A stretch of DNA of 50,937 nt from an uncultured bacterium (lineage in GTDB: Bacteria > Planctomycetota > UBA8108 > UBA1146): positions 88,706-139,642 of the forward strand of contig CAJXMG010000004.1 of the NCBI GenBank assembly GCA_913056395.1, read 5' to 3'. Both the position numbers and the translations under genes were made by a program. The notes beneath the pieces are model-generated. The model saw only the letters and a program-made list of their open reading frames with translations, was not told the DNA's origin and searched no databases. Shown piece after piece: positions 3,099 to 16,177 of the stretch (its first letter is position 1; the number at the start of each line of letters is the position of its first letter).

Positions 3099-6000
3099 TC
3101 AGGGGCAGGGATCGTATGCGGCACAATCGAGGCTGTCCGCAGTCGGGTCCTCACCACATGCACCGAACGGATCGGGAAGGGGACCGGAACCGCTGAAGAG
3201 GCTACCCAATGCAGCAATCGCATCGGCGATGTTGATGCTGCCGTCGTCATTGGAATCGCAAGAGTCGACGCAGGTTCCCTCCGGTCCTCCGGAGAAGAGG
3301 TTGCCGAGAAGGAAGACGGCGTCGGCGATGTTGAAGGCCCCATCCGAGTTGCAGTCTCCACGCTGGAAACCACCTCCTGGGGTGACACCGCCACCCGCCA
3401 GGAAATCGCGGTAAGCCGCAACCAGAGCGTTTTGATCTCCACCATATCCACCCAACTCGAAGGAAGAGCAGATGACGCGTCCACCGTTACCGGGGATGTA
3501 GGCCGTGGTGACCCCGTAGGCGAGACCAAGGGCGTCATCGAACTGCCACACCAGACCCGCATCTCCGCCGGCCAGTTCAGCCGTGGCAGGGATCAGGATA
3601 TTGGTGAAGTCATTGGGGTTGCCGCTCGCAGCCTGGTTGTCCTGGTTGTAAGCCACATTCTGGTTGGCGGACATATCGAGGCCAAGGCCACTGTCGAGAC
3701 CATCGAGGCTGACCAGTGAATCGGTATCGTCCTGAGCGTAAGGCTCGGCGACTCCGTCGCGGTCATCGAAGGCGGAGATCGGATGCTGGAAGCTCCAGTG
3801 GTCTGCACTCTCGAAGTAGATGGCGATTCCTGCTTCCGCAAGGCTCGCAACCAGATTGGCCTCGTCCACATTGAGTTTGGCGTTGGTGGGGAAGGTACCG
3901 AGGAGGATCCAGACTTGAGAAACCTGTGCCGGATCGAGGCAGAGGTATTCGTCGATCTGCATGCGCACCAACTTGGAGTTGGCTCCCGCTGCAAGAAGTG
4001 CCTGCTGGATGGCTGCCCCGGAATCGTTGGATCCGGTATCGCCACCGTCAAAGAGGCCTTCCATGGCGATGATGATGGTGTCTTCACCGTTGTAACCGTA
4101 GTGATCGGTGGACCCGGAGGCTTCGCCGGCACCGGCAGTACAGTTGCCACGCACGACGTAGCTCAGGAAGCCCTCCGGGGGAGAAGCGTCCGAGTAGGTC
4201 GTGGCATCACCGGGAAGATTGGCGATCACGACACCGTCACGCTCGATGGTGATTCCGGTGTAGGCACTGTTGTTGAGCCAGGCCAGATCGACACTGTTGA
4301 GGGCACAGGAACTGGTGATGGTCAGATCAGTTGGGGCATTGCATTCCACAGCACAAACCTGCAGGGCCCAACTGGTGAGGGTGGCGGTTGCGGCTGTGTT
4401 GGCCACGGTCAGGGTCCAGTCACCACCGATCGTTTCACCGTCGAAATCAGCCAAAGTGCCCGGACCGGACGGAATCAGGGATCCGAATCCGTCATTGTTG
4501 CCGGTGGCGTCATCGAAGCGTCCGATCAGATCGGTTCCGGCACCGTTGTCATGCAGGCGAATGCTGGTGCCTGCCGGAGAGAGTAGGTCGATGGCCACGC
4601 CGCTCAGATCCGGTGCTGCCAGATTCATGTCCACGTCGAGGTCGTCGATGCCGATCAGCGAAGATGGATCAACACTGATGGTAAAGGTTTCGACACCATT
4701 GATGACAGCGGGCTGGGCGATCTGAACGCTCCAGCTGTCGAGGGTTCCACCTCCGGTACTGGGGAAGATATCTGCGATCACGATGGCCCAGCTGCCACTG
4801 ACCGGCTCACCGTCGAAATCGGCAAGGGAACCGGTGCCCTGGGAAAGGGCGTAGGGCTGCATGCGGACGCCACTGAAAGTGGTGTTGCTGCCGTAGGGAA
4901 CTCCTTCGTCATCGAAGATCAGGTTCATGTTGTCATCGGAGTTGTTTTCGTTCTGGTACAGACGCACCTGAGTGTTGCTGGGTGCGACCACATCGATGTC
5001 GAGGTTACCGATGAAGCCGTGGGTGATGTTCACGCCGACGTCGAGGTCATCGATGGTTCCGGTTCCGGTGACATTGATGGTGTCAAAGGTGAAGTTGGTT
5101 GCAGGGTCACCCACGTAGGCGATCGGTGCCGCCGGTGCACTGGTGCCACCGATACCGATGAAGCCGTCGAAGGAGAGGTTCGGATTCGGGAACTGGTGAC
5201 AATCCGCAGGCGGGCAACTGACGGTCAGGGTGAGATCACCCCGCTCGCCATTGAAGCCACCAATCTGGACCAGGTAGGTTTCACCGGCGATGGCATCGAG
5301 GAGGATCTCCGGCTCGCCGGATCCGACACAACTGCCGGCGTCGCAGGCCAACTCTGAAGCGGCATCCGGAGGGCAGGCAGAGGTTCCGGGGTAGATGGCC
5401 ATCTGCGGGTTGAAGTCGGCTGTACCACAAGTGGTCAACACGACGATTCCACTGCAGGAAGCGGTGTAGAGGTACCAGACGTCATTGAGATTGCTGCCAC
5501 CACAAGAGGAGGGCCCGTCGCTGGAGGCTCCCAGAGTGGTGACTGCGACGCTTCCCTCACCAATGGGGGTTGCGTCCGCACAGTTGTCATTGGCAGGCGG
5601 TGCCGCACAGAAGGGGTCACCGGTGCAGTCGTCGTCGAGGCAGTCCACAAGTCCGTCGCCATCGTCATCGCCACCGTTGTCACAGACTTCAGGGCAGAGG
5701 TTGGGCAGTCCCGGGGAATCGAGAGTGAGATCTCCGAAGGGCTGGATCTCCCAGTTACCGTTTCCATCAGGACAGCGCACGGGGTGAGCCGGGACAAAGG
5801 TGCCATCCGGGCCCAGAGTGGTGGAGCAGTAAACCAGTTCTCCACCAGTGGGAAGTCCGGTGGTCGGATCCAGAGGATTCTCGAGGAGGGCCAGGCAGTC
5901 GATGATGGAAGTCCATGGAGTGACATCGAGGACACCGTCGTCATCGGTGTCAAGGTCATCACCGGTAGCACCTGTGAATCCTTCGACGAGAAGGTGGGTG

Positions 6001-6338
6001 ACGTTGTCACTGTTTTCAAAGGCAAGATCGGTGGTCAGATTTGCGCTTCCCAGAGTGAAGGTGCTTTCAGCAGCCACAAAGATCCCGGTCAAGCCGATGG
6101 AGTTTCCGGCGAGACTGACGACGGCTTCCACAGTTCCACTGCCGGTGGAGCCATCACCGATCACGATGTAGGTGTAGGTATCCAGGCTCGAAGCCGCTGG
6201 ACCCCACAACTCAAAGTACTCATCGTTGTCTGCGCCACCCTGATCGATGCGGAATTCATTGATCGTCACCTGGGCCTGGGCCGAAACGGTGAAGACGGTG
6301 AAAAGGAGCAGGAGCACCCCTGTTAAAACTCTGTTCAT
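3099..6338 (-). CDS. Secreted mosaic protein 1: lamin-tail, PPC-like, two P-domain-like modules, Fn3, shared module, dockerin-like repeats
   Basis: This is a 1079-residue exported protein of unknown role. A signal peptide (1-22, ending SAQA) is followed by a lamin-tail-like domain (24-165, INEFRIDQGGADNDEYFEL), a calcium-type DDDGDG loop (219-240), a pre-peptidase C-like domain (248-375, DVWYLYTA and YLVQIGGFNG), two proprotein-convertase P-domain-like beta units (about 412-542 and 550-662, each with LADFDGE), an Fn3-like domain (666-748), the shared unknown module (753-983) and a C-terminal block (991-1079). That block holds two NIAD-type calcium repeats and a tail CGEDPTADSLDC. The ATG at 6338 is preceded by GGAGGAAAATCAA. 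An in-frame start 12 codons upstream lacks this site. No protease or glycosidase catalytic motif was seen, so a surface or matrix adhesin-like role is only a guess. Confidence 0.8.
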   Translation of the reverse strand: MNRVLTGVLLLLFTVFTVSAQAQVTINEFRIDQGGADNDEYFELWGPAASSLDTYTYIVIGDGSTGSGTVEAVVSLAGNSIGLTGIFVAAESTFTLGSANLTTDLAFENSDNVTHLLVEGFTGATGDDLDTDDDGVLDVTPWTSIIDCLALLENPLDPTTGLPTGGELVYCSTTLGPDGTFVPAHPVRCPDGNGNWEIQPFGDLTLDSPGLPNLCPEVCDNGGDDDGDGLVDCLDDDCTGDPFCAAPPANDNCADATPIGEGSVAVTTLGASSDGPSSCGGSNLNDVWYLYTASCSGIVVLTTCGTADFNPQMAIYPGTSACPPDAASELACDAGSCVGSGEPEILLDAIAGETYLVQIGGFNGERGDLTLTVSCPPADCHQFPNPNLSFDGFIGIGGTSAPAAPIAYVGDPATNFTFDTINVTGTGTIDDLDVGVNITHGFIGNLDIDVVAPSNTQVRLYQNENNSDDNMNLIFDDEGVPYGSNTTFSGVRMQPYALSQGTGSLADFDGEPVSGSWAIVIADIFPSTGGGTLDSWSVQIAQPAVINGVETFTISVDPSSLIGIDDLDVDMNLAAPDLSGVAIDLLSPAGTSIRLHDNGAGTDLIGRFDDATGNNDGFGSLIPSGPGTLADFDGETIGGDWTLTVANTAATATLTSWALQVCAVECNAPTDLTITSSCALNSVDLAWLNNSAYTGITIERDGVVIANLPGDATTYSDASPPEGFLSYVVRGNCTAGAGEASGSTDHYGYNGEDTIIIAMEGLFDGGDTGSNDSGAAIQQALLAAGANSKLVRMQIDEYLCLDPAQVSQVWILLGTFPTNAKLNVDEANLVASLAEAGIAIYFESADHWSFQHPISAFDDRDGVAEPYAQDDTDSLVSLDGLDSGLGLDMSANQNVAYNQDNQAASGNPNDFTNILIPATAELAGGDAGLVWQFDDALGLAYGVTTAYIPGNGGRVICSSFELGGYGGDQNALVAAYRDFLAGGGVTPGGGFQRGDCNSDGAFNIADAVFLLGNLFSGGPEGTCVDSCDSNDDGSINIADAIAALGSLFSGSGPLPDPFGACGEDPTADSLDCAAYDPCP

Positions 6339-6385
6339 TTGATTTTCCTCCAGAGTGGAACCCTCACGTACCACTCAGTTGAAGT

Positions 6386-6676: not shown

Positions 6677-9600
6677 TTAGCAGCCGTTGTAAGTGTCGCA
6701 GGTCAGACCGTCGTCGGTCGGATCCTCGCCACAAACCGACGGTCCCGGATCCGCCGGTGCAGGTCCACCGGAGAAGAGGGCAGCCAGACCGTAGATCGCG
6801 TCGGCGATGTTGACGCCGCCGTCGTCGTTCTGGTCACAGCTGTCGGCACAACCACAGGGGGTACCACCGGAGAAGAGGGCAGCCAGCAGGTAAACCTGGT
6901 CGGCGATGTTGAAGCCCCCGTCTTGGTTGGTGTCACCACGCCTGAACACGGGGCCTCCGACGACGCCAGTTAGGAACTCAGCGTAGGCAAGAGACAGTGC
7001 AGACTGGTCTCCACCGTAACCACCGATCTCCCAGGACTGGACGATGGTGTTACCACCGACGGTGGTATCACTGGCGATACCGGTGTTGTACTGCGGAATC
7101 GGTGCTCCATTGGCATCGACGAGGGCGTCGTCAGAAGCCCAGACGACTCCAGCTGAAGCCACTCCGGCATCCGAACTGGCAACGGTAAACTGGTCAGTCC
7201 AGTCGATACCAGCCTGGTCCTGAGTGTAGGCCACGTCTTGGTTGGCACTCATGTCGAGTCCGACACCAGAGTCGAAACCATCCATGGAGGTGAAGGTGTC
7301 ATCTCCGTCACCGGTGTCGTAGGTGCCGTCATCGACACCGTCACGGCCATCGAAGAGGGAGGCAACGTGAAGGAATCCGAAGTGGTCTCCACCCTCGAAG
7401 TAAACGCCTTTTCCGGCTTCACCGAGGAGGGCCAGTTCGTCACCTTCGGCGGCGGTGATGCGGTAATCGTTGGGGACGGTACCGGTCAGCGCCCAGATGT
7501 TTTCAACGTCGGCGTCGCTGGCGCAAGGGTAATCGACCCAGCTGCTGCGAACGATGGCAGCGTTACGTCCGGCACCGACGAGGGCGCTGAGAAGCAACTC
7601 ACCGCTGTCCACAAGACCGGGGTCTCCGGCAGTCTGAAGTCCCTCGACTGCGAAGATCAGATCGGTCTGACCAGCGTAGGTCAAGACGGAAACGGTCACA
7701 CCCAAGGGGTTCGGACCAGCACCACAATCGGTGACCACCTCGTACTGGTAGGTGCCGTCAGCCACGCCAAGATCGACGTAAGTGGCATCGGCAGCACCCA
7801 GGGTGGCCACGGAGACGCCATCACGAAGGATCTCCTGAGAAGCGGCATTCGGATTCGGGGTCCAGTTGAGGGTCACGTCACCATTGGTGCAGTCAGCGGC
7901 ACCGGTGAGGTTGGTCGCCGGGACGCAGTCATTGATGGTGTACTCAAGGGTTCCCACGCCGGCAGCGTTGAAGGTGCCGAGGCGGATCAGGTACTCCTGG
8001 CCTGCGGTGGCAGCGAAGACGGTCTCCGCAAGGAACACATTACAGGCGGGGTTGTTGGTCGGGTTGGTACCCGCATTGACGTCATCGTTACATGCCACTA
8101 CCAGAGTCGGATCGTCGAGCAGTGTGGCATCGTAGGTGTAGACAGCCAGCATGGTGTCGGCACCGGCGATGTTGGTATTCGCACTGCAGGTGCTGACCAA
8201 AAGATCGCCATCCACGGACGCAGTGTAGCGAAGGAAGATGTCGTTGTTGATCTGGGTGATTCCGGTTCCGGGGTCACAAACAGCGAGATCGATCGGTACA
8301 CCGGTCGTGGTGGTGTAGGGCGTCACAATCTCCTGCTGGAAAGTTCCAACCGCAGCGATGGAAGCTCCACTTGGCCAGTTATTAGCGGGGGAAGTTCTCA
8401 AAGTGCAACCCGCAGAGTTGATCAGCGTTCCAGTACCATTCGGGCCAGACCATGAAGTGATCAGCACTTCCAGATCCTCGTAAGCCGGCTGAGGTGCGGT
8501 CAGGAAAGAAAGATCGGTAGAGGGCAGAATCGCCTCCACGTTTCCGTCGATCTCAATGATCCAGGATGCGGCTCCACCGGCGTCACTCCAGTTGAGGTTC
8601 CAGGTGGTGTCTCCCACGTTCTGGTCACACACGAGATTGGCGACTCCACCGGCTGATCCGCAGGTTCCGGCAACAGCAACGGAGTATCCGATGTCCATGA
8701 TGTAGCGGTTGTCGGGGAAACCGATTCCGGCGAGGGGAGTCGGGGTAGCGAGGCCACAGGAATCGTGTGAGCAGATGAAACTGGTTCCGATCTCACCGGT
8801 GGCGGCGATGTCGGTCAGTCCCATGTAAAGGCTGTTGTTGGTCGCTGTACCATCTTCAGGTGTGTAGATCTCCGCGACCAGTTTGGCGCTGGGTCCGTAG
8901 GAAGTCATGCACTGAAGAGTGTTGGAGGTTGCGCCCAATCCGTCTGGATCGATCACACCGGTTCCAAGGATGAAGTTAAAGAGAGCGTTGGCAACTGCTG
9001 GAACCTGGAACTCCTCCTCATACACCATCAGCATTCCCACATTGCTGGGGTCTGGTGTCGCAGCAACATTGGTTCCAACGACGTAGCTGAAGTTGTCGGG
9101 GTCACCGCCATTGACGTCAACGATCAGGCGGATACGAACCGGCATCGTTCCGATAGCAGGATCCGGGTCGGTATCGAATGCAGTTGTCACACACTCGACG
9201 GTGATTTCGTCACTGACTCCGTAGCCGTTGACCAGATCGAAGGATCGGTAGTAGGAAGAGTCAACCGTCAGGCCTCCAGCACCACAGGCAACACCACCAC
9301 CGATGGGAAGAACCGTCGGGATCGGCACCATGGTGCCAACAACGGTGGAGGGGCAAGGCTCGGCGATAAAGAAGCCACAGCAGATCTGGGCACTGGTTTC
9401 TCCACCGATGATACCTTCAAGGCAGATGGTATTTTGTCCAGGACCAAAACCGGTCAGGGTGTCGGTGGCTGCTCCTGCAGTCCCGTCAAGGGTTCCTGCA
9501 AGGGTACCGTTGAGGTACCAGTTGACGGTGTCGTACTGATCCTGGTTTTCCCAGGTCAAAGTCGCAGTGTCAGTCGGCTCGTCGTAAAGGCAAACGAGAT

Positions 9601-10123
9601 TGATCGGCGGGAAAACGCTGGAGAAAGTGACTTCCATATCGGTGGTTCCAACGGAAGCTGCGTCCCAGCCACCAACTCGAACGAAGTAAGTCACGCCACC
9701 GGTCACTGGGGCACTGTCGACTACGGAGCCGAAGTTGGCACACCCGGCGGTATCACCATCACAGGCGATCTCGGTCAGGGCACCGCAACCACCACCAGCG
9801 GAGTCATCGTAAAGAACGATGTCGGTGTCCAGCAGGCCGGGGTTAACACAGGTGCTCAAGGTGAGCAGGCCTGTCGAAGGTGCTGTCCAACTGAACCAGA
9901 CGTCGGACTCAACGGTTCCGGTAGGAGAACCGGCACAAGTAGAGGTGTCCGGAAGCGGCGGGTTACTGCTGGTCGCAGTGGTGTTGTCGATCGCCACCGT
10001 CACCGTACCCGGTGCGGTCAAGTTGATCGGCTGAGCATTGGCACATTCATCCGCTCCCTGTGCGCCGACGACGCCACAGGAGAGAATCATGAATGCAGCC
10101 ACCAAAAACGGTAGGTGTCTCAT
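6677..10123 (-). CDS. Secreted mosaic protein 2: PPC-like and Fn3 domains, Cys-bracketed beta domain, shared module, dockerin-like repeats
   Basis: This is a 1148-residue exported protein of unknown role. The signal peptide (about 1-21, VVGA) holds an ILSC sequence that loosely resembles a lipobox, but cleavage after VGA looks likelier. Then come a PPC-like domain (24-168, DVWFSWTA, YFVRVGGWD), an Fn3-like region (172-250), a cysteine-containing beta domain (279-482) also found in mosaic protein 3, an Fn3-like region (494-575), a second PPC-like domain (585-740), a third Fn3-like domain (741-818), the shared unknown module (820-1054) and the terminal block (1060-1148). The block has [32 protein letters not shown] and CGEDPTDDGLTC. 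The ATG at 10123 has AGGAAGG about 10 bases upstream. Domain names come from motif resemblance only. Confidence 0.8.
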   Translation of the reverse strand: MRHLPFLVAAFMILSCGVVGAQGADECANAQPINLTAPGTVTVAIDNTTATSSNPPLPDTSTCAGSPTGTVESDVWFSWTAPSTGLLTLSTCVNPGLLDTDIVLYDDSAGGGCGALTEIACDGDTAGCANFGSVVDSAPVTGGVTYFVRVGGWDAASVGTTDMEVTFSSVFPPINLVCLYDEPTDTATLTWENQDQYDTVNWYLNGTLAGTLDGTAGAATDTLTGFGPGQNTICLEGIIGGETSAQICCGFFIAEPCPSTVVGTMVPIPTVLPIGGGVACGAGGLTVDSSYYRSFDLVNGYGVSDEITVECVTTAFDTDPDPAIGTMPVRIRLIVDVNGGDPDNFSYVVGTNVAATPDPSNVGMLMVYEEEFQVPAVANALFNFILGTGVIDPDGLGATSNTLQCMTSYGPSAKLVAEIYTPEDGTATNNSLYMGLTDIAATGEIGTSFICSHDSCGLATPTPLAGIGFPDNRYIMDIGYSVAVAGTCGSAGGVANLVCDQNVGDTTWNLNWSDAGGAASWIIEIDGNVEAILPSTDLSFLTAPQPAYEDLEVLITSWSGPNGTGTLINSAGCTLRTSPANNWPSGASIAAVGTFQQEIVTPYTTTTGVPIDLAVCDPGTGITQINNDIFLRYTASVDGDLLVSTCSANTNIAGADTMLAVYTYDATLLDDPTLVVACNDDVNAGTNPTNNPACNVFLAETVFAATAGQEYLIRLGTFNAAGVGTLEYTINDCVPATNLTGAADCTNGDVTLNWTPNPNAASQEILRDGVSVATLGAADATYVDLGVADGTYQYEVVTDCGAGPNPLGVTVSVLTYAGQTDLIFAVEGLQTAGDPGLVDSGELLLSALVGAGRNAAIVRSSWVDYPCASDADVENIWALTGTVPNDYRITAAEGDELALLGEAGKGVYFEGGDHFGFLHVASLFDGRDGVDDGTYDTGDGDDTFTSMDGFDSGVGLDMSANQDVAYTQDQAGIDWTDQFTVASSDAGVASAGVVWASDDALVDANGAPIPQYNTGIASDTTVGGNTIVQSWEIGGYGGDQSALSLAYAEFLTGVVGGPVFRRGDTNQDGGFNIADQVYLLAALFSGGTPCGCADSCDQNDDGGVNIADAIYGLAALFSGGPAPADPGPSVCGEDPTDDGLTCDTYNGC

Positions 10124-10415: not shown

Positions 10416-12458
10416 TCAGGGACAATTTGCCGATTCGTCGCAGGTCAGGAGAGCTGCGTCCGTGGGATCCTCACCACAGGACCCTTCCGGTTCGGGCAGA
10501 TTGGGAGATCCGGGAACAAAGAGGTGTGTGAGCAGATAGATGGCATCTGCCAGATTGACCCCTTCGTCGTCATTGCAATCCGCAGCATCCCGGCAATCAA
10601 CCATGGGTGACCCGGGGACAAACAGTGATTCGAGCAGGTAGACCGCATCGGCAAGATTGACGGAATCGTCACTGTTGATGTCACCCCTGCGGAAGGGTGA
10701 AGCGATGTAGGCTCCCCTGAAGGAAGCAAGGAGATGGGAATCTGGATAGCCCAGATCGGAAAGTGGGATAGGGAGGTTGTTACCACAGAACGGAGCCGTG
10801 AATCGGGTGGGATCAGATTCCCCGGAGTCGTTGGTACCCAGGATCAACAAATGACCATCTGCAGTGCCGTCAGGAAGATGAAATTCGACGACCACATTCA
10901 TGCCGCATGGGAGCTGTACAGGGTTGTCCAGAGTCAGGCACATGTGGGACATTTCGAATGCGGGTATGTCGAAGGTTTGTTCATGAAGCAAATTCAGCAA
11001 GGCAGGATCGTTGATTCCGGACCCGGTCTGATCTTCATAAATTCTCAGGACGAGTGGTTGCACCGTAAAACCGGTCCCGGGATTGGAGTTTTCAATGCCG
11101 ACACGGATCGCCTCGAGGATCATGCCATTACTGAGCAGAAACGGGCTTTCACACGGGGAAAGAAGTCGCCATAACGATTGGGATTGGTGACCGGTCGCAT
11201 CGCCACAAAAAGGTGTCCCCTGAGTGATACTATCTGTATCCACACTGTGACTGATCTCAACAGTTGCGGGATCACAACCGGGTGCCAAAAGGTCGCAGCT
11301 GACGGAAGGGGTCCAACTGCTTCCTGAAAATCCTTGCGCCTCGATGCGTACCAGGGAAGGAAGGTTGGCTGTCACTCCAGCCCAACTTCCAGGATTTGCA
11401 GGCACGGTATCGACCAGTATCCCATTCACGCGAATCTCTACGCTATCTGCAGTGGTGCCCGGATCCCATGAAGCAAGAAGGGTTCCGTCACTCAAGGAGG
11501 AGCAGGAAAACCCGTTCAATGCAGGAATCAGGGTTGGGCAATCATCGTGTCCTTCGACCACTGAAATGGTGTTGCTTGAGTTGTCGACCACCCAATAGGA
11601 AGCGATACCGAATGGATCTGCAGTTGGGGCAGCAGCGGGGCGTGAACTCTCGACCCCATTGATAAAGAAACCGTGATTACTCAGATCCACCGGTGCCAGT
11701 GCGATGGAGCTTTGAGTGGATACGGAAGACAGGGTGGTGACGCGTCCAGCAAGATCATGCCCATGGGGAATGCTGAGCCGATTGCAGTCGGCTCGAAACG
11801 CCAGACCGTTTCCGAGTCCGTTACCATTGGGATGGTTCACTGAATTTCCGAGATAGGATCCATCGTTGATGGAGAGCAGGTCATAACGATCTGCAGTGAT
11901 ATCTGCTGCCCAGATGCCATCTGCTCCATCCCAGCTCAATCCTCCAATGAATCCTCCGCCCTGAATATCTGCAACTCCTACAAGTACGGGGTCCGTTCCA
12001 TCCGGATTGGATCGCCAGATTTCATTGGGGCCTGGTGGGTTGATCACTCCCCAGTAAAGCCATGTGCCGTCGGTGGTCACACCGGTCACGGAGATCCCTG
12101 CGGGAGGGTTCAGAATCGGCCCAATCGGGGCGAGGGTCAGGGCGTCGTAGACCCAGCTCTCTGCACTGAAGAGTTCGGCGACGACCAAGATGGGTTGAGC
12201 CCAGGGATTGTTGTCCGGCATGAAGCAGATGCCATAGGCACTGCTTCCGGAAAGAGGGAAGGGGCCTGCGAGAAGGTCAGAAGGGTTCATCGGGGCTGTA
12301 GAAGTCGCCGAAGTCCTGTCCTGCTCAAGCAATCCACGGGGAATCCCCTGGGCCACCACCTCCGAGGCGACGAGCCAGAATATCAGTATCGGAACAATGA
12401 CTGGAATCCGGGAAAGGATCCCCTTGCCCAATGTTCGGGCAGTAATCGTTCGTGGCAT
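10416..12458 (-). CDS. Secreted mosaic protein 3: propeller-like region, Fn3, Cys-bracketed domain, dockerin-like repeats
   Basis: This is a 680-residue exported protein. The signal peptide (1-36, VVA) is followed by a region (60-303) with repeated short GxSWDGADGIWA and VTTDGTWLYWG type blades suggestive of a beta-propeller, an Fn3-like domain (314-390), a cysteine-bracketed beta domain (395-583; CxGxNLPxxxSDLGYPD end) homologous to one in mosaic protein 2, and the terminal block (589-680) with two NLADAVYLL/NLADAIYLL repeats and CGEDPTDAALLTC. Unlike its three neighbours it lacks the shared module or calcium-loop arrays. I chose ATG 12458 because AAGGGG lies 9 bases upstream. ATG 12464 would be too close to it, and TTG 12476 precedes it. 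No enzymatic motif is visible. Confidence 0.75.
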   Translation of the reverse strand: MPRTITARTLGKGILSRIPVIVPILIFWLVASEVVAQGIPRGLLEQDRTSATSTAPMNPSDLLAGPFPLSGSSAYGICFMPDNNPWAQPILVVAELFSAESWVYDALTLAPIGPILNPPAGISVTGVTTDGTWLYWGVINPPGPNEIWRSNPDGTDPVLVGVADIQGGGFIGGLSWDGADGIWAADITADRYDLLSINDGSYLGNSVNHPNGNGLGNGLAFRADCNRLSIPHGHDLAGRVTTLSSVSTQSSIALAPVDLSNHGFFINGVESSRPAAAPTADPFGIASYWVVDNSSNTISVVEGHDDCPTLIPALNGFSCSSLSDGTLLASWDPGTTADSVEIRVNGILVDTVPANPGSWAGVTANLPSLVRIEAQGFSGSSWTPSVSCDLLAPGCDPATVEISHSVDTDSITQGTPFCGDATGHQSQSLWRLLSPCESPFLLSNGMILEAIRVGIENSNPGTGFTVQPLVLRIYEDQTGSGINDPALLNLLHEQTFDIPAFEMSHMCLTLDNPVQLPCGMNVVVEFHLPDGTADGHLLILGTNDSGESDPTRFTAPFCGNNLPIPLSDLGYPDSHLLASFRGAYIASPFRRGDINSDDSVNLADAVYLLESLFVPGSPMVDCRDAADCNDDEGVNLADAIYLLTHLFVPGSPNLPEPEGSCGEDPTDAALLTCDESANCP

Positions 12459-12715
12459 CTTCATCTTCCCCTTCAAGGACAGTGATAGAGTTCGCTTCCG
12501 CGTGAACAGAAGCGGGTTTGGGCCGCCCTTTGTCGTATAAGTGCCCCAAGATTAGCGGGGGGGGGAGTGGCAAGCGAGGGTTGAGGGACGCTTCTGACAG
12601 CTCTGTCATGAATGACAGGTCTGACATTTGGGAATGTCGATCTTCAACGAGATTCCCGGGGATCCTGATCATTGACTGTGGATTGAGAACTGCAGGTGGA
12701 CCTGAATCGGAAGAC

Positions 12716-12799: not shown

Positions 12800-15700
12800 C
12801 TAGGGGCAGGGCGGGAAGGAAGCACAGTCGAGCGGATCAGTTGTGGTCGGATCGACTCCACAGCTGGTCGGTGTCGGAGCAGGTCCGCCACTGAACAGGG
12901 CTGCAAGAGCGTAGATCGCGTCCGCAATGTTGATACCACCGTCGTCGTTGGCGTCGCAGGCATCCAGACAGGTTCCGGCAGGGCCACCACTGAAGAGGGC
13001 GGCCAGCAGGAAGATGGAGTCTGCAATGTTGAATCCACCGTCAGCGTTGCAGTCACCACGGACAAACTCCGGATCGGTCGGTGTGGTACCACCACCACCG
13101 AGGGCTTCAATGATATCGGCAGCCAACAGAACCTGATCGCCACCGTAACCACCAAACTCCCAGGACTGGACGAGCACGTTACCGATCGGTGAGCCCGCAA
13201 GATCCTGGTTTTGGCTGTACGCTCCGGTGATGTAGGCACCGTTACCCTCTTGCCAGATGGCGCCGACATTCGGTCCACCTGCTTCAGGTCCTACAGTCAA
13301 CTGGTCGGTCCAGTCGTTTCCTGCAGCGTCCTGGTTGTAAGGGACGTTCTGGATTCCACTGAAGTCCACACCGAGAAGTGTGTCCAGACCACTGACACTG
13401 AGGAAGGTGTCGTCACCATCCAGAGCGGAGAGCACGCCGTCATAGCCTTCAAAGGCTCCAACGGTGGGAGCGAAGCCCCACATGTCGCCACCCTCGAAGT
13501 AAACACCGATTCCGGCTTCAACCCAAAGGGCCAGAGCATCGGAATCTGCGGTCGTCAGGGGACCATCCTCGGGGAAGGTACCACTGCAGACCCAGACGCG
13601 CTCGTAGGTGCCAATGACGTTACCCAGCTGGGAAGCCGGGAAGTCCACCACGGTCAGGAAACTGATGCCGTTGGCGGTCAAGGCTGCCTCAAGAGCTGCA
13701 GTACTGTTGATTTGTCCGAGGTCAGTTTCCGTCTTGAAGATGATGTCGGTCTCTCCGCCACTGGCGCAGGAGACATTGACAAAGACCGAAGCGGAAACGG
13801 CACTGCCGGAAGCGCAGTTACCCGTCACGGTGTACTCGTAGGTACCGTTGCTGAGAGCGTTGGAATCGGTGTAGGAAGTGGTTCCTGCAGCGAGGCCAGC
13901 GGCCAGAACAACACCGTCACGAAGCACGTCGTAGGTATCGAATCCACCGTCGTCCCAAGTCAGGCTTGAGGTGCTGGTGGCACAGCTGTAGCTGGCATTG
14001 AAGTTGCTGATGGCCGTGGCACCACAGCTGACGCTGATGTCGAGGAAGCCGTCTCCCACAACTCCGTTCCAGCCACCGACCTGAACGTAGTAGCTTTCAC
14101 CCGCGATCACGGGAATCTCGACGGAAGACATGAAGGCAGCGCCACCCGGAATGTTGGCACAGTCGTCGTCACCAGAACCGATGCAGCCAGGACCCGTCGG
14201 GCAACCGGCAAGACCGTCGTAGACGATCAGAACAGTGTCGTCGTTGGTTCCACCACCATCACAGGTTTGAATCACAGCAGTACCGTCGGCAGTTGCGGTG
14301 TAGAGGAACCAAACATCGTTGGTCATGTTGTCGTCACAGTCGATGGGGCCATCCAGAGTACTGATGGTGTTATCCCAGGCAAAGTTGCCTTCTCCCACGA
14401 GTTCTGCATTGACGCAGTCGTCGTTGGGGGCTGCCTGACATGGACCTGTTCCGATGCAGTCAGGATCGAAGCAGTCGGTCAGGCCGTCGACATCGTTGTC
14501 GATACCGTCGGAGCAGGAAATGTCATCACCTTCGAAGCAGGTCGGGAAGGTTGCGCAGTCAGGATCGAAACAGTCGGCGAGGGTGTCACCGTCATTGTCG
14601 ACGCCATCGTCACAGATCTCGGTTCCACAGGCAGCGGATCCGGCACAGTCAGGATCGAGACAGTCGACGATGGTGTCACCGTCATTGTCGATGCCGTCGT
14701 CACAGATCTCGGTTCCACAAGCAGCGGTTCCGCCACAGTCAGGATCGAGGCAGTCGATCAGGCCATCGACATCGTTATCGATTCCGTCGTCACAGATTTC
14801 TGCTCCGGGGAAGAAGATGTTGAGTGCACCGTCTCCAGTGGCACCGTTCCAGCCGCCGACCTGAACGTAGTAGCTCTCACCGGAGATGACAGGAACCTGG
14901 ACCTGAGACATGAACCCGGCTCCACCTGCGACGTTTTCACATTCGTCGTCACCGGAGGCGAGGCAGGGTGCACCAGCAGTGGGGCAACCGGCCAGGGCAT
15001 CGTAGACGATGAGGACGCTGTCAGCATTGGTACCACCACCGAGACAGGTCTCGATCACGGCAGTACCGTCAGCACTTGCGGTGTAGAGGAACCACACGTC
15101 ATTTTGCATGTTGGCATCACAGTCGTTGGGACCATCGACCAGAGAAGCTGTGTTGTCCCAAGGGAAATTACCCTCGCCGATAGCTTGGGCGGTCAGGCAC
15201 TCATCATTGTCCACAATCGGACAGAAGACCGTGCCGAGGGGGCAATCGATGTCATCGCTGCAGTCGATCAGGCCATCACCGTCGTTGTCGAATCCGTCAT
15301 CACAGATTTCAACACCGCAAATACCAATACCGCCACAGTCTGCGTCCGCGCAGTCAATGGCTCCGTCGCCGTCGTTGTCGATTCCGTCACCACAGGTGGC
15401 CGCATCGCCCTCGAAGCAGAAGGGGTCACCGATGCAGTCGGTGTCGAAACAGTCGATGATGAGGTCGCCGTCGTTGTCGATGCCGTCATCGCAGATCTCG
15501 ATTCCGCAAGGAGGAATTCCGGCACAATCGAGGTCCTGGCAGTCGATGGTTCCGTCACCGTCGTTGTCGATACCATCGCCACAGGTGGCAGAATCGCCCT
15601 CGAAGCAGTTCGGAGCTCCAACGCAGTCCGGGTCAAAGCAATCGATCAGACCATCGACGTCGTTGTCGACGCCGTCGTCACAGATTTCCGCAGCGGGGAA

Positions 15701-16177
15701 GAAGATGTTGAGTGCACCGTCTCCAGTGGCACCGTTCCAGCCGCCGACCTGAACGTAGTAGCTCTCACCGGAGATGACAGGAACCTGAACCTGAGACATG
15801 AACCCGGCTCCGCCTGCAATGTTTTCGCATTCGTCGTCACCGGAGGCGAGGCAGGGTGCACCTGCAGTGGGGCAACCGGCCAGGGCATCGTAGACGATGA
15901 GGACGGTGTCGTCATTGGTACCACCACCGAGACAGGTCTCGATCACGGCAGTGCCGGAAGAGGTGGCGGTGTAGAGGAACCACACGTCAACGGACATGTT
16001 GGCATCACAGTCGATGGGACCTTCGATCAAGGACCCTGTGTTGTCCCAGGGAAAAGTACCCTCGCCGACAGCTTCGGCGGTCAGGCACTCATCATTGAGG
16101 GGCTGTGCCCCTGCATTGCCCAGCGGAATCAGGGCCGTAATGGCCAGGATCGCCGCAAAGTAAATGAATCGCTTCAT
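12800..16177 (-). CDS. Secreted mosaic protein 4: three PPC-like domains, nine Ca-loop repeats, shared module, dockerin-like repeats
   Basis: This is a 1125-residue exported acidic protein. A signal peptide (1-24, AGA) is followed by PPC-like domain 1 (28-161), five calcium-loop repeats (164-320), PPC-like domain 2 (324-457), four more loops (459-581), PPC-like domain 3 (585-717), an Fn3-like domain (721-803), the shared unknown module (810-1029) and the terminal block (1038-1125; [24 protein letters not shown]). The loops follow ICDDGxDNDxDGxxDCxDPDC, with paired cysteines, like MopE or thrombospondin type-3 style calcium motifs. PPC 1 and 2 are nearly identical even at DNA level. ATG 16177 has AGGGAGT upstream. 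Strong calcium binding is a reasonable inference from the Asp spacing. Function is unknown, with a rod-like surface protein most likely. Confidence 0.82.
14435..14803 (-). repeat. Four Ca-loop repeats (block B) in mosaic protein 4
   Basis: Four copies of the ICDDGxDNDxDxxxDCxDPDC unit at residues 459-581, separated by 8-12 variable residues. They encode alternating Asp/Asn with two cysteines each. The DNA is correspondingly repetitive (recurrent CGTTGTCGA-like blocks on the plus strand). Confidence 0.9.
14804..15208 (-). repeat. Long direct repeat, copy 2 (PPC-like domain 2)
   Basis: This 405-base segment is nearly identical, with scattered mostly silent changes, to 15692-16096, displaced by exactly 888 bases (296 codons). 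It encodes PPC-like domain 2 of mosaic protein 4. The highest identity is in the half nearest 14804-15060. The in-frame displacement points to an internal duplication of a domain-plus-loop unit. Confidence 0.9.
15218..15688 (-). repeat. Five Ca-loop repeats (block A) in mosaic protein 4
   Basis: Five loop units at residues 164-320. Two spellings alternate: EICDDGxDNDxD and [12 protein letters not shown], often separated by FEGD. The last unit is degenerate ([14 protein letters not shown]). Together with block B this makes nine loops in one protein. Confidence 0.9.
15692..16096 (-). repeat. Long direct repeat, copy 1 (PPC-like domain 1)
   Basis: Partner of 14804-15208 at 888-base displacement. 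It encodes PPC-like domain 1 of mosaic protein 4. Divergence is concentrated near the signal-peptide end (around 15950-16050). Confidence 0.9.

What the first reader, a model, noticed from the sequence alone, without database searches (positions are those of the whole stretch)
3390..4082. Unassigned 220-235-residue module shared by mosaic proteins 1, 2 and 4
The same module precedes the terminal block in three of the four proteins (3390-4082, 6962-7666, 13091-13750). Common features: a TDIIF/TDLIF-type first strand, a VW.L.GTFP motif, YFEGGDxWGF, a DGV, DGDDTF.S..GLDS..GLDMS.NQxVAY.QD block, DWTDQ, and a final V.SWE.GGYGGDQ. The alternation of a hydrophobic strand, helix and then catalytic-looking Asp/His/Glu suggests an alpha/beta fold loosely like class I glutamine-amidotransferase-like or ThuA-like domains, but the usual Cys-His nucleophile pattern is not evident. 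I know of no name for it. Its place always follows an Fn3-like domain.
Basis: partly seen in the sequence, partly recalled or inferred. Interest (0 to 1): 0.75.

Follow-up and report, generated by a model that had tools for sequence, protein, structure and literature searches.

The report
Cysteine-less glutaminase-fold module in planctomycete proteins
Three neighbouring secreted proteins of a marine planctomycete share a roughly 230-residue domain that no family database searched here names; a confident structure prediction shows the fold of the glutamine-splitting 'GATase' enzymes without their catalytic cysteine and histidine, so it is a new branch of a known fold, probably a binding or assembly part rather than a new kind of enzyme.

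Summary
A module of about 230 residues recurs in window proteins 1, 2 and 4 (38-46% identity, E down to 6e-47), between an Fn3-like domain and a dockerin-like tail. No Pfam or NCBIfam model fits it, even at E<10 over 35 members. The own genome has 7 copies and each of the 16 genomes of the taxonomic family has 6-24. Elsewhere in Planctomycetota it is nearly absent: one genome in the order, and two of another family whose copies follow PAD_porph deiminase domains.

AlphaFold2 is confident (pLDDT 90, pTM 0.91). Foldseek puts it in the class I glutamine-amidotransferase-like fold: GH42 domain B, GMP-synthetase and ADC-synthase glutaminases, IFT52, ThuA.

The GATase triad is not kept: no column holds Cys or His in more than 22 of 52 divergent copies. 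Glu-Gly-Gly-Asp stands near the nucleophile elbow (E in 49/52, D in 50/52); S-x-E (48/52, 47/52), D (50/52) and Y (48/52) are also conserved.

Best reading: a lineage-expanded, GATase-incompetent accessory domain that binds a ligand or partner in tail-bearing secreted proteins. The ligand is unknown.

The parts
3390..4082 (-). Module copy 1 in protein 1 (GATase-like fold); profile envelope 3396-4088
6962..7666 (-). Module copy 2 in protein 2; profile envelope 6968-7672
   Evidence: 46% identity to copy 1, E 6e-47
13091..13750 (-). Module copy 3 in protein 4; profile envelope 13097-13756
   Evidence: 38% identity to copy 1, E 3e-27
3099..6374 (-). Protein 1, 1091 aa: N-terminal region, weak GBD_T9SS_assoc, P_proprotein domains, Fn3-like, module, dockerin-like tail; hydrophobic signal-like start at the second possible start codon
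   Evidence: Pfam P_proprotein E 5e-21
6677..10123 (-). Protein 2, 1148 aa: GBD_T9SS_assoc, further unassigned region, Fn3-like, module, dockerin-like tail
   Evidence: GBD_T9SS_assoc E 9e-9
12800..16177 (-). Protein 4, 1125 aa: nine acidic double-disulfide repeats, Fn3-like, module, dockerin-like tail
   Evidence: NF033662 E 5e-71
4140..4331 (-). Fn3-like domain before module copy 1
   Evidence: profile; predicted all-beta, block pLDDT 94-98; Foldseek hits to Fn3 domains
7721..7918 (-). Fn3-like domain before module copy 2
   Evidence: seed segment
13814..14011 (-). Fn3-like domain before module copy 3
   Evidence: seed segment
3102..3368 (-). Dockerin-like C-terminal tail of protein 1
   Evidence: Dockerin_1 E 0.006, below cut-off; own tail profile
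6680..6946 (-). Dockerin-like C-terminal tail of protein 2
12803..13066 (-). Dockerin-like C-terminal tail of protein 4
   Evidence: Dockerin_1 E 0.053
3801..3812 (-). E855-S-A-D858 of protein 1 (Glu-x-x-Asp after strand 4, region of the GATase nucleophile elbow)
   Evidence: E in 49/52, D in 50/52 divergent copies; placement at the elbow inferred from predicted secondary structure
3456..3464 (-). S971-F-E973 of protein 1 (S-x-E after the last strand, where GATases carry H-x-E)
   Evidence: S in 48/52, E in 47/52 copies; equivalence to H-x-E inferred
3600..3602 (-). Position of the Asp kept in 50/52 copies (Asn925 in protein 1, an exception)
3648..3650 (-). Tyr909 of protein 1 (Tyr in 48/52 copies)

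Best explanation
The module is a secreted domain of the class I glutamine-amidotransferase-like fold that has lost (or never had) the Cys-His-Glu glutaminase site. In place of the nucleophile it keeps an acidic, Asp/Glu-rich constellation at the carboxyl ends of the parallel strands. It most likely acts as an accessory domain that binds a ligand (glycan, peptide or metal) or a partner subunit, in large exported mosaic proteins whose dockerin-like tail sorts or tethers them outside the cell. Shown: recurrence, absence of a family in the libraries searched, predicted fold, absence of any conserved Cys or His, conservation of the acidic set, restricted distribution with expansion. Inferred: that the conserved residues form one pocket, that the pocket binds rather than catalyses, and that the tail tethers.
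For: Fold: AlphaFold2 pLDDT 90.1, pTM 0.91. Foldseek PDB hits are mostly GATase-like: GH42 domain B 5xb7 E 3e-6, ADC synthase 8hx6, GMPS GATase 7yc6, IFT52 5fmr, ThuA 1t0b E 7e-4; GH42 domain B is a trimerization domain (PMC8233224, PMC7105311). Profile-profile scores against GH42M (33.9; best of 40 block-shuffled controls 26.5) and ThuA (28.7; best control 23.4) exceed every control and pair strand 3 - helix - strand 4 in register. No glutaminase chemistry expected: best Cys and His columns 22/52 each. Conserved E97, D100, Y151, D167, S213, E215 (module numbering) over subfamilies joined to subtilase, P-domain, C-type lectin, FG-GAP and PAD_porph domains. Accessory role: a similar position across unrelated catalytic or binding partners. 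Orthologues of protein 1 keep the module at 52-95% identity, in most comparisons more than the adjacent Fn3-like domain, and form one clade across the genera sampled.
Against: Profile-profile probabilities are low in absolute terms (16-44% local) and the GATase family itself scores within its controls. TM-scores are moderate (about 0.4-0.6). No coordinates could be inspected, so clustering of the conserved residues is inferred from strand ends only. The strict conservation of acidic residues could equally mean an active enzyme. No ligand or partner was identified.
Confidence: 0.6

Rival explanations
1. The module is an active hydrolase or metalloenzyme with a re-invented acidic active site (Glu near the nucleophile elbow, with Asp167, Asp100 and Ser213-x-Glu215) on the GATase-like scaffold.
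For: Near-invariant E97, D100, D167, Y151, S213 and E215 over copies of very low mutual identity, several placed after strand ends where GATase-fold active sites lie.
Against: Always attached to other domains, often complete enzymes (S8, PAD_porph); found repeatedly beside other non-catalytic accessory domains; protein 1 itself has Asn at the Asp167 position; nearest structural hits include the non-catalytic GH42 domain B.
Confidence: 0.15
2. The module is a purely structural oligomerization or spacer domain, like the GH42 trimerization domain, with conservation due to folding or calcium stabilization.
For: Best Foldseek hits are GH42 domain B; GH42M also gives the best profile-profile score; Asp-rich DGDDTF and GLDMS loops could bind calcium.
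Against: Several of the most conserved polar residues lie after strand ends, as in a functional site, and survive in the shorter subtilase- and PAD-linked forms that lack parts of the Asp-rich loop.
Confidence: 0.2
3. The repeat of the module within one gene neighbourhood reflects recent tandem duplication of whole genes with no separate function.
For: Proteins 1, 2 and 4 lie close together with the same Fn3-module-tail end.
Against: Copies are only 38-46% identical; protein 1 has its own orthologous clade across genera and other copies group with their counterparts in other species; the block ahead of the Fn3-like domain differs between proteins.
Confidence: 0.05

Closest known systems
GH42 beta-galactosidase domain B (Pfam Glyco_hydro_42M, PF08532)
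   Same: Best Foldseek match (5xb7 E 3e-6, TM about 0.6 by query) and best profile-profile score, strand 3 - helix - strand 4 in register; non-catalytic GATase-like domain attached to other domains.
   Different: No Pfam match; not attached to a GH42 barrel; extra Asp-rich insertions; conserved E-x-x-D and S-x-E; the family's genomes have no PF08532 match at all.
ThuA-like domain (PF06283)
   Same: Same fold (1t0b E 7e-4); weak in-register profile match; common in relatives of the same class.
   Different: No Pfam ThuA match; the ThuA hit in the own genome near two extra module copies (G000:C3:114955) lies in a separate open reading frame; motifs differ.
Class I glutamine amidotransferase (PF00117)
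   Same: Fold (7yc6, 8hx6, 1qdl); E kept at the S-x-E (H-x-E) position (inferred mapping).
   Different: No conserved Cys or His; profile match no better than shuffled controls.
OST48 and IFT52 N-terminal GATase-like domains
   Same: Foldseek hits for IFT52 (5fmr) and for oligosaccharyltransferase complex chains 6s7t_G and 8b6l_N, which I take to be OST48; recalled as non-catalytic users of the fold in protein assemblies.
   Different: Eukaryotic, no sequence similarity detected.

Membership tests
Class I GATase-like fold | Three-layer alpha/beta fold with GATase topology | tested here: met
   AlphaFold2 pLDDT 90, pTM 0.91; most Foldseek hits with E<=0.001 are GATase-like domains
Class I glutamine amidotransferase (enzyme) | Catalytic Cys at the nucleophile elbow and His of the H-x-E motif | tested here: not met
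   No Cys or His column above 22/52; E-G/S-G/A-D and S-x-E instead
Class I glutamine amidotransferase (enzyme) | Match to Pfam GATase PF00117 | tested here: not met
   No GATase hit for any of 35 members at E<10; profile-profile at control level
GH42 domain B (PF08532) | Pfam match above cut-off | tested here: not met
   profile-profile above 40/40 controls but local and modest
GH42 domain B (PF08532) | Homotrimer formation through contacts with a catalytic barrel | not testable with these tools
   no GH42 barrel in the proteins; oligomeric state unknown
ThuA (PF06283) | Pfam match above cut-off | tested here: not met
   profile-profile above controls but weak
Dockerin type I (tail, PF00404) | Duplicated Ca-binding loop-helix with Pfam match above cut-off | tested here: inconclusive
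   Window tails below cut-off (E 0.002-0.05); some relatives above it (L114 E 1e-9, L106 E 4e-7); two main helices predicted
Dockerin type I (tail, PF00404) | Cohesin partner in the same genome | tested here: inconclusive
   Weak PF00963 matches in all 16 family genomes, over cut-off in 14; binding not testable

The most novel reading that the evidence does not exclude
The module is an active enzyme of a new class, a GATase-fold hydrolase whose cysteine nucleophile has been replaced by a Glu/Asp-based site, displayed in many copies outside the cell by one planctomycete family.
Probability: 0.12. Interest if true: 0.7.

Novelty: new member of a known kind. Interest (0 to 1): 0.38.

Why it matters
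It is a domain family without a Pfam or NCBIfam model, present in all 16 sampled genomes of one marine planctomycete family in 6-24 copies each and joined to proteases, lectin-like and beta-propeller domains, with a distant form joined to deiminases. Naming it removes a dark region from these secretomes. The conserved acidic set on a cysteine-less GATase scaffold gives a concrete target for asking what degenerate GATase domains bind.

Tried and rejected
PDB sequence searches: the only hit, agmatine deiminase 2jer at E 0.06, vanished with the better profile, rejected as chance. Distant members gave no Pfam, NCBIfam or PDB hit of meaning. No relative found in plasmids by tblastn with a PAD-linked module or in viral contigs with alignment A2. 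Global profile alignment to GATase and ThuA was uninformative; to GH42M it was collinear over the whole length but of low probability. Foldseek against viral structures gave mostly generic GATase-like or Rossmann hits. Literature searches for a described equivalent found nothing on this domain.

Full report
WHAT IS THERE. Proteins 1 (3099-6374), 2 (6677-10123) and 4 (12800-16177), all on the minus strand, end in an Fn3-like domain, a module of about 220-235 residues, and a dockerin-like tail of about 90 residues. Protein 3 (10416-12476) has the tail but not the module. Copies 2 and 4 match copy 1 at 46% and 38% identity (E 6e-47 and 3e-27).

IS IT KNOWN. Pfam and NCBIfam give nothing for the module in the full proteins or in 35 members scanned singly at E<10; the scattered weak hits there (best E 0.025) agree on no family. 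A six-sequence profile gave one weak PDB hit, which the 35-sequence profile did not reproduce.

WHERE IT OCCURS. The own genome (2.77 Mb in 57 contigs, about 95% complete) has seven copies. All 16 genomes of the taxonomic family have 6-24. One genome of the same order has one. In a sample of 392 genomes of the phylum only 20 match. One of these 20, G021 at E 7e-4, is a match of about 40 residues and is probably chance. G046 and G209, from another family, match weakly at first, but iterative profiles bring their copies to E 1e-29 to 1e-37. Record titles of related loci name marine Planctomycetota such as 'Planctomycetia bacterium TMED53'. The copies form old orthologous groups: protein 1's own group spans several genera, and the subtilase-linked copy groups with those of G046 and G209, although long branches make that join uncertain.

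COMPANY IT KEEPS. Other copies sit in proteins with subtilase S8, PKD, P_proprotein, GBD_T9SS_assoc, C-type lectin and FG-GAP domains; in G046 and G209 all four proteins carry a PAD_porph deiminase domain ahead of the module. An Fn3-like domain precedes the module in 80 of 88 readable copies, and the tail follows directly in 72 of 93. AlphaFold2 of Fn3-module-tail predicts an all-beta domain, the module and a tail with two main helices (pLDDT 84.6), and Foldseek of that model returns Fn3 structures.

FOLD. AlphaFold2 on the 35-row alignment gives pLDDT 90.1 and pTM 0.91. Foldseek against the PDB returns GATase-like domains almost throughout: GH42 domain B (E 3e-6), ADC synthase, GMP synthetase GATase subunits, anthranilate synthase, oligosaccharyltransferase chains, IFT52, ThuA. 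The exo-mannosidase hit 7bob carries a GH42-type trimerization domain (PMC8233224). By sequence profile the module beats 40 of 40 block-shuffled controls against GH42M and against ThuA, but not against GATase proper. The best-aligned part is the strand 3 - helix - strand 4 unit; this is support, not proof, of common descent.

SITE. In 52 copies below 75% mutual identity the most conserved polar positions (module numbering, +758 for protein 1) are E97 (49), D100 (50), Y151 (48), D167 (50), S213 (48) and E215 (47), together with G68, P71 and Y95. No Cys or His column exceeds 22 of 52. From the predicted secondary structure E97-D100 close or follow strand 4 and S213-E215 follow the last strand, the places where GATases carry the Cys elbow and H-x-E. 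That mapping is inference, since coordinates could not be inspected.

MECHANISM. I take it to be a non-glutaminase GATase-like accessory domain that binds a ligand or partner (0.6). A structural or oligomerization role (0.2) and an active acidic-site hydrolase (0.15) remain open. The tail recurs about 105 times in the own genome (counted by hand) and cohesin-like domains occur in all family genomes, so tethering or sorting outside the cell through the tail is plausible, untested.

VERDICT. Limits: no UniProt, InterPro or AlphaFold DB search was possible, so a described equivalent there cannot be excluded, and distribution outside Planctomycetota was only sampled through plasmid and viral collections and one pattern-based scan of genomes.

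Noticed in passing
whole genome G000; window tails at 3102-3368, 6680-6946, 10419-10694, 12803-13066: The dockerin-like C-terminal tail occurs about 105 times in the 2.77 Mb genome, which suggests a general sorting or attachment tag for secreted proteins of this lineage. Most copies fall below Pfam's Dockerin_1 detection (37 found).
   Followed up: partly
L230 843-2108 (-), L231 1069-1989 (+), L232 567-1916 (-): Weak cohesin (PF00963) matches in all 16 family genomes. In the own genome the cohesin-like domains lie in proteins that also end in the dockerin-like tail, hinting at a cohesin-dockerin-type surface assembly in planctomycetes.
   Followed up: partly
L107, L108, L109, L110 (G046, G209): PAD_porph-type deiminase domains followed by the GATase-like module in two genomes of another planctomycete family, a second architecture for the same module.
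   Followed up: partly
L042, L066, L070, L072: Record titles say Bacillota or Proteobacteria, but L042 and L070 match contigs of genomes G013 and G010 in the same planctomycete family by length and position, so those titles appear misassigned. L066 was not traced.
   Followed up: partly
window 12800-16177: Protein 4 holds nine acidic double-disulfide repeats (NF033662, E 5e-71) between three near-identical repeated segments.
   Followed up: no
L111 3371-6332: In G008 one module copy is split over two overlapping reading frames (profile positions 1-73 in one, 115-218 in the next), a frameshift or an assembly error. L057 shows a similar split.
   Followed up: no
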